A stretch of DNA of 64,000 nucleotides from Sarcomyxa edulis (taxonomy: Eukaryota; Basidiomycota; Agaricomycetes; Agaricales; Mycenaceae), in the NCBI GenBank assembly GCA_009761415.1, contig QUOL01000001.1, positions 3,720,001 through 3,784,000 of the forward strand. The letters are read 5' to 3'. Under the pieces are notes generated by a model that saw only the letters and a program-made list of their open reading frames with translations, was not told where the DNA came from and made no database searches. The position numbers were made by a program, and so were the translations under genes. Shown piece after piece: positions 1-6,043 of this stretch. Position 1 is the stretch's first letter, and each line of letters starts with the position of its first letter.

Positions 1-2282
1 ATCAGAGCATTGGCTTTCTCCATCTTCGGAAATCGTATATTTCAGAACGCTCAAATCACAGAGTGCTTACAAGAAAGCGTAAAAGAATGGCTGATATATG
101 AGAGAGAATACAGGTAAGCTATCAGTATTGCATGCTTTGTATTTTGACGCTTGACATTGCACGTTAGACTTTCAGCTAACTTAAGGGGGACAATTCCGAT
201 GCTCGTCGCACATCTGAACACTCATGGGCAATACTCAGCCTTTGAAGAGAACTATCTACATTGCACGCAGACGTTCTACGAAGCTGAATCCAAGGAGCGT
301 GCAGAAGCACTCAAAACTCAGGGCGATGCCAAAGGATTCTTCAAGCATGTACGTCAGCGTATTGAAGAAGAGGAGACCAGGTCGAAGGAGATGCTCCCTG
401 TAGGGAGCTGGGCTATCGTCAGAAAAACTACCGAACAGGCGTTATTGAATGGGACGTCGGTGTGGCTTGCAGATAATGGTACGTCCAGATATATGTCTTG
501 GAGAAGACGGTATCCTAAGCGTACCTTACATAGCTCTGGGTCCTTTCATGACTGCAAAGGATATCAACAGCTTGCAAGCGATGTACAAACTTTTCTCCCG
601 GATCGATGGTCTCAAAACTCTGTGTTCCGCGTTCAAGGCTCACGTCCAGGTGTGTGTCCACTTCGCCAGAATCGTTCACTTCTCAACCTGACACCATCAA
701 TCTGATAGACAGAGGTACAAAATATCGTGAAGGACCCAGAACTCGATGGCGAGATGGTAGAACGTCTCCTGGCGCTCAAATCCCTCGCAGATCATACCAT
801 CAATTTTGCCTTCCTCGACGAAGCATTCACGCCGGCAACATCCAAGAATGGCTCTACCGGTGAATCCACTAGCGCCCCTCGACCGACTCGCCCCAACCAA
901 GAATTCGTCTACGCCCTCACAGATGCCTTTACTACCGGTTTCAAACGCCGTCGCAATAAACCTGCAGAGATGATCGCTATCTATATCGACAAGGCTATGC
1001 GAAAGGGCCAACAAGGCGCTACCGACGCTGAATTCGAAGCAATGTTGGATGGTGCATTGGGGTTATATCGTTACACGGACGACAAAGATGTGTTTAGGAC
1101 TTTCTATCATCGTGCGCTCGCTAAGAGGTTGCTGCTGGGACGGAGTGCTTCTGACGATTTCGAGAAGGCGATCTTGAAGAAGCTGAAAGACCGTAAGCTG
1201 TATCTTTCTCCTGTCGTATTCGTATTTCTTCTAATCCGTCACATTTCCAGAATTTGACCCGGAATTCGGTATGGGAGAGGAAATGTTCAAGGATCTTGCG
1301 TTATCAAGAGAGTCCATGAGAGATTACCACGAAAAACTCGATAGAAACAGTCCAGGTCAAAATCTCAACGTCATGGTCCTCCAACAAAGCGCCTGGCCGT
1401 TCTCTCCTCCGAAGACGAGCTCAGATTTACCACCCAAGGCATGTGCATGACTGGTCTTTGTCGGTGTATTGACTCATCGTTCCTGAACCTCCCTATTCCT
1501 AGATGCAATCGGAGTTGACAGCCTACACCGAATTTTACAAGACTAAGCACCAAGGCCACAAGCTCACCTGGGATCATTCCTTGGGGACCGTCACCATGAA
1601 AGCCAGGTTTACCGCTGGGAGTAAAGAACTTTCTTTGAGTCTTTACCAAGCTCTTGTCCTCCTCTTGTTCAACGACACGGATGAATTGCGTTATACGGAT
1701 ATTCTAGAAGAAACTCGGATGGGTAAGTCGTAAACACTTCGCATAAGGTCAGAACCACGCATATTAATCATGTCGCCACAGACGAAGGAGAGCTCCAACG
1801 GACTCTTCAGAGTCTCGCGTGTGGTAAGAAGAAAGTGTTGAAGAAGGTTCCCGTTGGTAGGGATGTACACACCACGGACGTTTTCCAATTCAATTATGGG
1901 TTCACCGACCCGAGGGCGAAGTTGCACATAAACTCTATACAAGCCAAAGTATCGGTACGTCCATGTCTCCACTGACACTGCCAGAGGTATTTTTCTAACC
2001 GTTGCATTTATTCTCTTGCAATAATAGCCGGAGGAGTCCAAACGCACGCAAACTTCCATCGAGGGCGACCGTAAACATTATCTCGACGCCGCCATTGTGC
2101 GTATCATGAAAGCTCGCAAAGAACTGCCTTATGCACAGCTCAGCATGGCTACCATCGACGCCGTGAAGAGTCATTTCGTGCCAGCGGTTGATATGATCAA
2201 GGCCAGGATTGATAGCCTGGTGGAACAAGAGTATTTACGGAGAGATGAAGAAGACAGAAGTCTATTTATTTATGTGGCTTGA
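1..2282 (+). CDS. CUL4: Cullin-4-type ubiquitin ligase scaffold, 3' part (5' end outside window)
   Basis: Scaffold of a cullin-RING E3 ubiquitin ligase. The reading frame is open from base 1, so the N-terminal part is missing. Spliced exons give cullin repeats followed by the cullin homology domain (FYHRALAKRLLLGRSAS, then LQRTLQSLACGKKKVL) and a C-terminal neddylation winged helix, IVRIMKARKELPYAQL. The lysine at 2109-2111 matches the Nedd8 acceptor. The protein ends in YVA, as CUL4 proteins do, which favours CUL4 over CUL1 or CUL3. Introns include 114-167, about 479-535, about 650-711, about 1193-1251, 1439-1502, about 1724-1782 and about 1951-2028. The intron at 1439-1502 has a GC donor. 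The paralog assignment rests on my memory of family sequences; membership of the cullin family is secure. Confidence 0.92.
1439..1502 (+). other. GC-AG intron in the cullin gene
   Basis: A 64-nt intron with donor AAG|GCATGT and acceptor CCTAG. Using the GC donor joins DLPPK to MQSELTAYTEF in frame, which is the expected cullin sequence. The nearest GT donor, at 1443, would shift the frame and hit a TAA within about 40 nt. Confidence 0.85.
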
Positions 2283-4212
2283 ATGTACGTCCTTCAAATC
2301 GTGGGTATATACGACTCATTTTTGTAAGGTTTCTGATTCGAAATTTGACCCAGTAACAATTTATTATACATGTGTATGTAACTTTTAGATGTGTTTTTTG
2401 GTTCATGCCGCATCCCAGCGCACATCAATGGTGCTGGCGTCAAGGCCAAGTTACAATTTGGCTAGAATCTTTCCCGAGAGGTTTCGTATCTTCCTGCAAC
2501 GCACCGGCTGAAGCCAATAGCCGGTACCGCGATACTGCTGGCACATGCACCCTCAAGTCCACCCAAAATTGATGGCAGCGAGCGTATGTGAAGTAGGTTC
2601 AGCGCCATTCAACATACAACTCGGGCTTGATGATCTTTAGTCTACAATGGTGAGTTCAACTCAGTTTGTTTTAGCATCTTATCGCACTTTCTCACTGATT
2701 CAATTTGCAACTGTCTTCTCCAGGTCGTCCCAATGTTCTAATGCAGGTTACTCCGAGTCTGGAATATTGCTACTCCCCTGTTTCGGATCGCGGAGGTTTT
2801 CTGGGCATCGACAGGCTCCGAGAATTCCAGAATCTGAGACAACTCTCCGTCGGGTACGGTGTGCAGACTCTTTCCATGATGGTTGGAGCGCCTTAAGCCT
2901 CTAACTATAAGGAGTGATGGGACCAGGTATTCATACTCACGATAGATCGCTGTATTTCCGACTAGCAGTGAAGCTGAGATCACAAGGGACTTTCTTCGCA
3001 ACTTTGAGTTCATAGCAATCATGTCATGCCTGACGCCACGATGATACTCCAGGTTCCAGGAGTTAAATTAAACTCAACGGAATGTTGGTAAGTATAGCAT
3101 AGCGCTCGCCTTGACGGCGGCGGGAAATAGAACGTGGAGAAGGACTTCTGGTAGGCAAGTAATGTCGACGTCCCCAGCGGCGTCCATTCCTTCCTTCCCG
3201 ATATGTCAGGTTTGACCCATGTATCTGGGATTTTCAACAAACTCGAGCCCTTTCACCCAAGCACATATTTGGAAACAAAGTTGTTGAAATCTCATAAAGT
3301 CTGAGCCGGGTACCACAAGTTTTTCTCTCCTGAATCTGTAGTAGTCGGCTGCACTGCGCGCAACATGGAGAACGATAATATTCATGGAGCATGTGGTACT
3401 AATGGTATGTTATGTAGTTAGAAACTCGAAGGAAAATAGATATTTAAGTGATGTTGGGCCTACGAGGAAAGAGAGGATAATATGCTGGGGTGACGGAAGT
3501 AATTGAGATTGTACCTTGCTATAATTCGAGGAACGGAAAAGAGGGAAAAAGGATGAAAAGTACCCGGGATGAGATGACCAGAGAAACATAGCCGTTTTTG
3601 GTTCCGTTCCTCTCCCATCCTCCTCGGGGCCGCCGGCACCTCACCAATAAGCATGCATGCATAACCCGCCGCTAGTGGAATCAACCACATCGAACCCCCT
3701 CATAACATGATCGAACGAATCTAGATCAAATTCATCAGCATGGAGAAGAAGAAGCACAGGCTAAAACGTAGGAAGACGCACATTTCTGCTTACAATCGCA
3801 CTGCCCGACGCAGACAGCAACGGACGGATGGATGGATTTGCACATGCACGGTTATCGGAAGAAAGTGTAGTTTTTTTAGGACACCGGAGATAGAGGGGCC
3901 GCGTGATTGATTGAGCGATTGAGGAAAAAGAAAAAGAACATGATATGAGTTTTCGGTTTTCAGTTTATGCATAGAGAAGGCAGCAAAGCGATAACGGGAG
4001 GTATATCCGCTGTGAAGGTATAGTAGGGAAGATTGATGGAGAAAGTGTGACAGGCAGATAATTGATGAAAGATCTTGGATGAAAAAGTGTGAACCGGCAC
4101 GTAGGCCAGTGTGGGATATAAAAAAATCAGAATGGGAAGGACACCAAAGATGTGATGGCGAAAATTAGCGAAAAAAGACATTGCATGGTCATAGAAAAAA
4201 GAGAGCAGAAGA
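2283..4212. other. Intergenic stretch, no convincing gene
   Basis: This lies between the cullin stop and the 3' end of the G-alpha gene. A short minus-strand open stretch (2738-3022, about 95 codons, with a possible intron near 2900-2938) is the only candidate. It shows no recognisable domain, and I would not call it a gene. The rest holds short AT-rich runs and presumably the 3' UTRs of the two convergent genes. Confidence 0.5.
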
Positions 4213-6043
4213 TTAGATCAAGGCCGCAACCTCAAGGTTGGATCGGAGAACGATGCTAAATGGGATGACGACAATCCGGAAGGAGCGTGAAGAGGGAGGA
4301 GAGAATGCGTTAAGCGTACGGTTGGGTTGCATGCGTTCGAGTAGAAAGAAAGAATTGAAGAGGGATGAATGGAACAAGACGACTCACTCTATAGGATGTA
4401 TAAGAAATGTTAGTAACGATTGAATGGTCGAAGAATTTGAGAAACTGACCTTCGACTGCAGCCATAACTACTCGTAACATGGCGGTATCCGTGGCATTTG
4501 TCACGCTTCAAAATACGTCAGCGTCATTGGTCTTCAAGAGCAAAGCAGTACTTCGCCGTTGAGATGTATAACAAGTTCACGTACTGAATGTAAATCTCAC
4601 GCTCTTTCTGCCGACCAGCTTTCACAGCAAGCTTCGCGAACCGTTTCTTGAAGTATTCCCGCCCGGCTTTTACATCACCTGTTGGGCCTTCAAAATCCTG
4701 CGAACGGGGAACTGAGAAAGACACATAATTGAATGGAGCGGCGGTGAATACATACGGGGAAGAAGTTCTTGATATCAGAATTTGGAATCTTCCGCTGGAA
4801 AAGGTCATCCTTGTTCAAAAACAAGATCTAGAGGAGACTTTGTGAGAACGACCTTTGTGAGCGCAGCACGTACTACGGATGGCTTACTATAGATGTCTGT
4901 TTAAACCATTGTGAATGACATATTGAATCCCAGATAGTCATGGCGTCTTGCATTTGGTTCTAGTACCCTCTATTAGCCCAGCGTAGTAGACAGTGCATTA
5001 CAAGACTCACCGCATCCTTATCCTCTACCAGACACTGATCATACCCACTCAGACTGACCAAGAACAGAATACTCGTCACATCCTGGAAACAATGTATCCA
5101 TTTCCGTCGTTCGCTCTTCTGTCCACCCACATCGACCATGAGCATCTCATGGTCCTTCAGCGTGAACGTCGTCTCCGTAATCCCGATCGTCCGCGCTCTG
5201 CATTGAATGATGTCCTGATCGTGAGGCTGGTACGCCGGGTCAAACAGCCGCTCCAGTGACGAGAAGAAATATAACAAACTGTATATGAGAAATTTAGCCA
5301 TCGCAACCCCTCATTGAACAAGATTGTAAGCGCACTTTTCAGGTAAAGCAGCCTCGTTCCCTCGTTCCCAAGCCCTCTGTACATTTGGATCCGACCATAG
5401 CGATATCAGAGGTTGATAGAATTCCTTCGGAAATGGCTCTCCGTCTCGAATGTCGGCAGCGTTCTCGATCAAATCGATGTACTCTAGGTTTTCCTCCGAA
5501 ACTTTGAGATCCATGTCTTCCATTGCATCCAGTAGATATTTCAGTCCATGGGTCAGATTGTTAAAGACTAGCTGCCGGTACGATTCAATTTCCTGTGCAG
5601 AGAAGGGGACTTTGTGGATGTATCGCATTTGCTGGATGTAAATAGGCGATTTAGTCTCGTACGAGCATGCCTCCTCTCCCCTCGACTCACCTTCAATATT
5701 GTGGATTTCCCAGAGTCTCCTGACCCCAGAAGCAGTACCTTCATGATAGTTACGGTCAGAACGAAGACGTTCTGGAAGTATTTCATTTAAACCACTCACC
5801 TTGACTTGAGCCGCCAGTTTTGATTTAGCCTGTGGAGACGAAGTTAGTCGATAATTTCCAACGATGCATGTGAATGATAGTTGGTCAAAGAAGATAAGAG
5901 TGCAGAGGTTGATCAAGCTATCATGGAAGACGATCCATACAGTAATATCGACTCACCTCTCTCAAGCTCTTTTCTGCCTCTCGATGTAGCGCCTTGTCCT
6001 GCTCCGATACCTCCACGCCGCCCGAAGACATGCAAGCACCCAT
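4213..6043 (-). CDS. Heterotrimeric G-protein alpha subunit
   Basis: GTP-binding alpha subunit that couples seven-helix receptors at the plasma membrane to effectors. The start at 6043 gives MGACMSSGG, with Gly2 for N-myristoylation and Cys4 as a probable palmitoylation site. Eleven exons give about 361 residues. They contain the P-loop GSGDSGKST (near residue 46), the helical domain, switch I RTIGITETTF, switch II DVGGQKSERRKW, NKDD for guanine recognition, TNATDT (the TCAT box) and the receptor-contacting C-terminus VEDIVLRSNLEVAALI. The length is normal for the family. The last part needs a one-nucleotide exon at 4388 between introns 4389-4449 and 4256-4387. Family membership is certain; I cannot assign it to a particular fungal G-alpha class. 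Confidence 0.96.
4388..4388 (-). other. Putative one-nucleotide exon of the G-alpha gene
   Basis: On the minus strand the exon ending GTC GAA G is followed by intron 4449-4389 (donor GTCAGT, branch TTACTAAC, acceptor CCTATAG), a single A at 4388, and intron 4387-4256 (donor GTGAGT, acceptor CATTTAG). Joining G + A + C makes GAC, and the frame continues as D-IVLRSNLEVAALI-stop, the expected G-alpha ending. Splicing directly from 4450 to 4255 gives a different frame, ending ASFSDPTLRLRP. Retaining the second intron gives VEE-stop. Confidence 0.75.

What the first reader, a model, noticed from the sequence alone, without database searches (positions are those of the whole stretch)
4256..4449. 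One-nucleotide exon needed for the G-alpha C-terminus
Between two introns with good GT..AG ends, a single A (position 4388, minus strand) is the only base that brings the conserved receptor-contacting helix D-IVLRSNLEVAALI into frame. Skipping it or retaining either intron destroys the C-terminus. Single-base exons are known only from a very few genes (one is described in Arabidopsis). It could also act as a switch: skipping would give a G-alpha with an unrelated tail. A stepwise (stwintron-like) removal that rebuilds the donor GA|GTGAGT would give the same mRNA.
Basis: partly seen in the sequence, partly recalled or inferred. Interest (0 to 1): 0.88.

Follow-up and report, generated by a model that had tools for sequence, protein, structure and literature searches.

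The report
One-base exon with two Gα tails
A mushroom G-protein gene appears to need an exon one base long, and in its relatives that point leads into either of two different receptor-contacting tails, so one gene probably makes two forms of a key signalling protein.

Summary
Minus strand 6043-4213 encodes a basidiomycete Gα (Pfam G-alpha, E 2.7e-116). A single A at 4388, between a 61-nt and a 132-nt GT..AG intron, is the only one of 15 enumerated micro-exons that gives a gap-free C-terminus, VED-IVLRSNLEVAALI.

Relatives support it. Of 177 retrieved homologs, 80 of 80 on short, transcript-like contigs read VED plus a proper tail; 0 of 97 annotated entries do. Thirty of the 97 end 'VEE', as ag|A|GTRA read through would give; 13 are gap-free but read G for D, which I cannot explain without their DNA.

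The transcript-like proteins carry two tails after the same D: 46 tail A (DIVLRSNLEVAALI type) and 34 tail B (DAIISKNIRTIML type). The tails are interspersed on a tree of the gene bodies (20 changes; two old paralogs predict 1). Three pairs have 96-100% identical bodies and opposite tails. The window also holds a tail-B exon (3800-3761, DAIVSRNVRLPTF*), downstream and in phase; 0 of 7118 chance candidates in 10 Mb score as high.

Best reading: a conserved agaricomycete splicing hub in which a one-base exon leads to either of two last exons. One-base exons are known (Arabidopsis, Fusarium); I found no report of one feeding alternative last exons. No transcript from this species was seen.

The parts
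4450..6043 (-). Gα body, exons 1-9: 6043-5957, 5829-5800, 5738-5691, 5631-5336, 5278-5011, 4959-4888, 4827-4756, 4697-4585, 4505-4450
   Evidence: open spliced translation; homologs at up to 86% identity; Pfam G-alpha E 2.7e-116
4389..4449 (-). intron before the one-base exon, GTCAGT..TATAG, 61 nt, CTAAC branch-like site starting 25 nt from its end
4388..4388 (-). one-nucleotide exon A, second base of the Asp codon GA|Y
   Evidence: only gap-free solution of 15; D present in 80 of 80 transcript-like homologs
4256..4387 (-). intron from the one-base exon to tail A, GTGAGT..TTTAG, 132 nt
4213..4255 (-). last exon A: C ATC GTT CTC .. TAA, tail DIVLRSNLEVAALI
   Evidence: best of 73 acceptor-and-stop candidates in the window, 43.0 bits; tail A in 46 of 80 transcript-like homologs
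3761..3800 (-). probable alternative last exon B: ag|T GCG ATT GTA .. TAG, tail DAIVSRNVRLPTF, same phase as exon A; intron from the one-base exon would be 587 nt
   Evidence: best of 92 acceptor-and-stop candidates, 5.5 bits, next -8.8; 0 of 7118 candidates in 10 Mb simulated sequence reach 5.5; translation with the one-base exon

Best explanation
The gene is a Gα subunit whose last shared full exon ends in phase 1 (GTC GAA G). A constitutive exon of one base (A, 4388) brings the message to phase 2, and its donor A|GTGAGT is then joined to one of two last exons that both start in phase 2. Exon A is proximal (4255-4213, tail DIVLRSNLEVAALI) and exon B is distal (3800-3761, tail DAIVSRNVRLPTF here, DAIISKNIRTIML type in relatives). 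Shown by the sequence: the base, its sites and frame, and both last exons in tandem. Shown in relatives' predicted proteins: D plus tail A, and D plus tail B. Inferred: that the choice is alternative splicing or polyadenylation of one gene; that the two introns are removed one after the other because one base cannot hold both splicing complexes at once; that the two tails change which receptors the Gα couples to, since the tail is the end of the α5 helix; and that the one-base exon is locked in because losing it would put both tails out of frame together.
For: Only the 1-nt exon gives a gap-free tail among 15 micro-exons. Of 177 homologs from three searches, 80 of 80 on short contigs read VED and a tail (46 A, 34 B), while 0 of 97 annotated entries do; alone, the search with the whole protein, it is 50 of 50 against 0 of 70. 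After VE the 97 read G in 54, E in 32 (30 stop there), A in 6, V in 3, D in 2 with an unrelated tail. In the window VEE = ag|A|GTGA read through, G = first intron read through, ASFSD = A skipped; 4 of the 6 A cases resemble ASFSD. A short uninterrupted ORF for a gene with ten introns suggests spliced RNA. Near-identical bodies, opposite tails: P0045 (A) and Lactarius tabidus P0158 (ends in part of tail B), 337 of 337; P0063 (Suillus fuscotomentosus, A) and unnamed P0103 (B), 99.1% of 348; P0157 (A) and P0127 (B), both unnamed and transcript-like, 96.4% of 390. P0132 (VED, tail A) equals the Leucoagaricus gongylophorus model P0144, which lacks the tail, over 291 residues. On the tree of bodies the tail label changes 20 times among 76 rows; 200 shuffles give 17-31; two ancient paralogs would give 1. 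Tail-B exon in the window. The family search shows one close Gα locus here; the other two canonical Gα genes (L009, L010) end in ordinary tails.
Against: No RNA from this species was available. The relatives' DNA was not seen; their layout is inferred from proteins. The short contigs are called transcripts from length, source and an uninterrupted ORF, not from a label. 13 of 97 annotated entries carry a gap-free tail (4 tail A, 9 tail B) with G where the transcripts have D; how those models were joined, or whether some species truly have G, cannot be told. Two of the three searches used a VED query from the C-terminal region and so favour that form. Tail B here departs from the relatives in its last four residues (LPTF), ranks only fifth in the window when acceptor and stop are not demanded, and its nearest YTNAY site lies 149 nt before the acceptor, so it may be weak or decaying in this species. 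No receptor-coupling data were seen.
Confidence: 0.84

Rival explanations
1. The one-base exon is real, but in this species only tail A is used; the tail-B exon is a decayed relic, so there is no switch here.
For: Tail B scores 5.5 bits against 43.0 for tail A; last four residues unlike the relatives; no YTNAY site within 149 nt of its acceptor.
Against: Reading frame, stop at the length usual in relatives, acceptor and phase are all intact; 0 of 7118 simulated candidates score as well.
Confidence: 0.35
2. Two paralogous genes, one with tail A and one with tail B, rather than alternative last exons.
For: The database proteins are cluster representatives, and most show one tail without a same-species partner.
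Against: Both exons lie in tandem behind one body in the window; the body tree has 20 label changes, not 1; 96-100% identical bodies with opposite tails; one close Gα locus in this genome.
Confidence: 0.06
3. No one-base exon: a single intron with a cryptic site keeps the frame and inserts residues (4449-4383 with 43 residues in place of D, or 4445-4256 giving VEGHIVLR).
For: Both are open frames with GT..AG ends; some annotations look similar, for example P0009 Armillaria and P0015, P0026, and 13 annotated entries are gap-free with G for D.
Against: 0 of 80 transcript-like homologs have an insert or G; neither option serves tail B.
Confidence: 0.04
4. A [D1,2] stwintron (nested twin intron) with no exon between.
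For: An alternative acceptor tatagAG| rebuilds G|TGAGT (sequence).
Against: The product is out of frame for both tails: VEHRSPIQP* and VECDCKQK...
Confidence: 0.01
5. Assembly or sequencing error at the site.
For: A one-base shift is what an indel error looks like (no call).
Against: Annotations of many species break at the same codon, and transcript-like proteins restore the same D.
Confidence: 0.01

Closest known systems
Single-nucleotide exon of Arabidopsis APC11 (PMC4674806; part 1 of 3 of the text read)
   Same: One A between AG and GT, needed for the frame, missed by annotation; shown there by cDNA and reporter constructs.
   Different: Constitutive, with one outcome; here it sits before two alternative last exons and rests on relatives' predicted proteins.
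Single-nucleotide exon of Fusarium CYP621A (PMC12940212; parts 1 and 2 of 3 of the text read)
   Same: Fungal; phase-1 to phase-2 bridge in a conserved motif; the paper reports the gene models wrong there with one exception at transcript level; 18 SRA reads in two species.
   Different: One genus, one outcome; here found across several agaricomycete orders, with two tails.
Single base-pair exon of placozoan mitochondrial cox1 (PMC5436844; search listing only)
   Same: An exon of one base pair.
   Different: Mitochondrial, not a nuclear spliceosomal exon (recalled).
Stwintrons of ascomycetes, including one tied to exon skipping (PMC6616335; passages seen)
   Same: Two adjacent introns whose order of removal could shape the product.
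   Different: A stwintron leaves no exon; the [D1,2] reading fails on frame here.
Xlr2 microexon switch of Trichoderma virens (PMC11121469; passages seen)
   Same: Microexon-linked splicing that yields two protein forms in a fungus.
   Different: 20-nt exon that is in or out; here the one-base exon seems always in and the last exon varies.
Alternative C-terminal exons of animal GNAO1, Go1 and Go2 (recalled, no call)
   Same: One Gα gene making proteins that differ at the C-terminal end.
   Different: Different lineage and exons; no one-base exon that I know of.

Membership tests
Single-nucleotide exon | one base between an AG acceptor and a GT donor | tested here: met
   AG|A|GTGAGT at 4390-4382
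Single-nucleotide exon | base needed for the correct frame | tested here: met
   only gap-free product of 15; skipping gives VEASFSDPTLRLRP*
Single-nucleotide exon | present in mature RNA of this species | not testable with these tools
   no RNA held; relatives' transcript-like proteins 80 of 80 with D
Gα subunit | G-alpha domain over the whole protein | tested here: met
   Pfam PF00503 residues 20-350, E 2.7e-116; aligns to Go up to its residue 350 of 354
Alternative last exons | two last exons with own stops in the same phase behind one donor | tested here: met
   4255-4213 and 3800-3761
Alternative last exons | both used in RNA from one gene | tested here: inconclusive
   near-identical bodies with opposite tails and an interspersed tree in relatives; no RNA from this species
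[D1,2] stwintron | nested introns whose removal leaves the coding frame | tested here: not met
   out of frame for both tails

The most novel reading that the evidence does not exclude
Across the Agaricomycetes one Gα gene carries a one-base exon that acts as a fixed phase adaptor for a splicing switch between two receptor-contact helices. Mushrooms would thus couple one Gα to two receptor sets. The shared phase of the two tails would have kept the one-base exon alive since before the orders split, while gene models generally miss it.
Probability: 0.6. Interest if true: 0.9.

Novelty: new variant of a known kind. Interest (0 to 1): 0.82.

Why it matters
It would move the one-base exon from a curiosity to a conserved part of a central signalling gene, with a reason for its persistence: two tails depend on it. 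It predicts that the annotated C-terminus of this Gα is wrong in most deposited mushroom genomes (0 of the 97 annotated entries examined show the transcript-like form), which matters because that end contacts receptors. It gives a direct test of how the splicing machinery handles an exon too small to be defined by itself, and of whether fungi change receptor coupling by splicing.

Tried and rejected
My first exon model had a wrong boundary at 5335 and was out of frame; corrected to 5336. Two labelled alternatives were mis-set by a base or more and read out of frame; the enumeration in the same call gave the right ones.

Skipping as the switch: rejected, no such tail in 80 transcript-like proteins. 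A VEE-ending third form: 30 of 97 annotated, 0 of 80 transcript-like, so treated as annotation error. Paralogs as the source of the two tails: rejected on tree and pairs. The same arrangement in the other two canonical Gα genes: not found; the divergent Gα-like loci (L011-L023) were compared only by tblastn and a motif scan, so their 3' ends are not settled. Left open: 27 of 97 annotated entries do end in a tail A or B peptide, 14 with an insert or a broken tail and 13 gap-free with G for D.

Literature: ten searches. Five aimed at fungal or general Gα splicing. Searches returned no paper, as did 28 on microexons and last exons, so wording may have failed. Searches listed 6 and 3 papers; I judged them by title and opening of the abstract, and looked at passages of three: PMC9030616 ('splic' and 'isoform' 0 times), PMC8242266 (alternative splicing treated genome-wide, Gα only as an expanded family) and PMC9866537 ('splic' and 'isoform' 0 times). 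Only an open-licence library was searched. (bacterial promoter and terminator scan) does not bear on a fungus.

Limits: transcript-like against annotated was assigned by hand from source and contig length (transcript-like: sources jgi, lgn or ena, contig at most 3.2 kb); P0024 has no contig and was counted as annotated. The lists show 120 of 3183, 120 of 207 and 76 of 76 hits. Searches used VED-tail-B queries, which favour that form. Proteins are 90% cluster representatives, so A and B forms of one gene may be merged. The tree held 98 rows: 76 of the 80 transcript-like (bodies over 300 aa), 21 chosen annotated rows and the window; quick search, 35 of 95 inner branches weak.

Full report
What is there. 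The window's minus strand 6043-4213 carries a Gα gene (Pfam G-alpha E 2.7e-116). The spliced 361-aa product aligns without a gap at its C-terminal end to solved Go and Gt/Gi chains and has database relatives at up to 86% identity.

Is the one-base exon forced? The upstream exon ends GTC GAA G (phase 1) and the last exon starts C ATC (phase 2). I enumerated micro-exons of 1-59 nt with both introns at least 40 nt: 15 candidates, 4 of them open to the right end, and only the single A gives the homologs' length. Single-intron joins that keep the frame also exist but insert residues. Skipping the A gives VEASFSDPTLRLRP*; reading on after it gives VEE*; keeping the first intron gives VEG... A nested [D1,2] twin-intron reading is out of frame for both tails. 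The motif AGNGTRAGT would occur in a stretch of this length about 0.5% of the time.

Relatives. Three protein searches gave 177 different homologs. Eighty lie on contigs of at most 3.2 kb from assembly sources (jgi, lgn, ena) with one uninterrupted ORF; since the gene has ten introns here, these are most likely spliced transcripts (inference). All 80 read VED followed by a proper tail. The other 97 are annotated, mostly genome-derived entries; none reads VED plus a proper tail. After VE, 54 have G, 32 have E (30 stop at once), 6 have A, 3 have V and 2 have D with an unrelated tail. In one search alone, the whole-protein search, the contrast is 50 of 50 against 0 of 70. In the window these letters correspond to first-intron read-through (G), acceptor plus AGTGA (E), skipped A (ASFSD; 4 of the 6 A cases look like it) and cryptic acceptors (V). 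So annotations of many species break at the same codon, mostly in ways the window's layout predicts. Not all: 27 of 97 still end in a tail A or B peptide, and 13 of these are gap-free with G where transcripts have D. Whether that is a modelling device or a real G in some species cannot be told without DNA. One direct check: transcript-like P0132 (VED, tail A) is identical over 291 residues to the genome model of Leucoagaricus gongylophorus (P0144), which loses the tail.

The second tail. Among the 80, 46 end in tail A (DIVLRSNLEVAALI type) and 34 in tail B (DAIISKNIRTIML type). I looked for tail B in the window and found ag|T GCG ATT GTA AGC AGA AAT GTG CGT CTT CCT ACG TTT TAG at 3800-3761, downstream of tail A, same strand, same phase, and of the usual tail-B length of 13 residues. 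With a profile of 26 tail-B peptides from other species it is first of 92 acceptor-and-stop candidates in the window (5.5 bits, next -8.8), and none of 7118 candidates in 10 Mb of simulated sequence (order-2 Markov) reaches it (maximum 0.1). Without the acceptor and stop condition it ranks fifth of 80220. It needs the same A: GA|T. Its last four residues are unusual and its branch site is unclear, so its use in this species is likely but not sure.

One gene or two? On a tree of the bodies without tails, the A/B label changes 20 times among 76 rows; 200 shuffles give 17-31, mean 25.3; two old paralogs would give 1. Pairs with near-identical bodies and opposite tails: P0045 with Lactarius tabidus P0158 (337 of 337; the genome model ends in IRDIML, part of tail B), Suillus fuscotomentosus P0063 with unnamed P0103 (99.1% of 348), and P0157 with P0127, both transcript-like and next to Mycena on the tree (96.4% of 390). 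In this genome the family search gives about 17 Gα-like loci including this one (my grouping of 42 matches); the best long match to the window protein among the others is 34% over 266 residues (L009); the two other canonical genes have ordinary tails. A tail A or B peptide is seen in named entries of Boletales (P0063), Russulales (P0158), Polyporales (P0066), Hymenochaetales (P0165), Jaapiales (P0109) and Sebacinales (P0178), there with G or an insert before it; in Agaricales it is seen with VED in P0132, identical to the Leucoagaricus model (orders). Two unnamed tail-B rows with VED group with Serendipita. The window's fungus falls in a set of 37 rows with Hypsizygus, Coprinopsis, Schizophyllum and Agaricus (SH-aLRT 92, not starred), so an Agaricales member is likely.

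How it probably works. Shown: frame, sites, two last exons, relatives' proteins. Inferred: the first intron (61 nt, CTAAC near its end) is removed on its own, leaving GAAGA|GTGAGT; this donor then takes the proximal acceptor (132 nt) or the distal one (587 nt). The stop of tail A lies before tail B, so the choice fixes the tail. Both tails are the end of the α5 helix that enters receptors (established for Gα in general, recalled), so the switch should alter coupling. Because both tails start in phase 2, loss of the one-base exon would break both at once, which may be why it has lasted.

What is known. Single-nucleotide exons are published for Arabidopsis APC11 (PMC4674806) and Fusarium CYP621A (PMC12940212), and a search listing shows one in placozoan mitochondrial cox1 (PMC5436844). 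The kind is therefore known. New here, as far as ten searches in one open library reach, are its place in a Gα gene, its apparent spread over several orders, and its link to two alternative last exons.

Noticed in passing
window 148-1257, + strand: Cullin gene fragments (Pfam Cullin E 1.6e-35 and 9.9e-10), convergent with the Gα gene.
   Followed up: partly
own genome G000, loci L009-L023: About 17 Gα-like loci (my grouping) in a 35.6 Mb genome, most far from canonical Gα: a large divergent Gα family.
   Followed up: no
annotated entries among P0006-P0178: None of 97 annotated entries shows the VED-plus-tail form of the transcript-like proteins; 13 are gap-free with G for D. Likely widespread mis-annotation.
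   Followed up: partly
P0169, Serendipita sp. 400: Annotated protein reads VED and then an unrelated sequence; the local gene layout may differ in Sebacinales.
   Followed up: no
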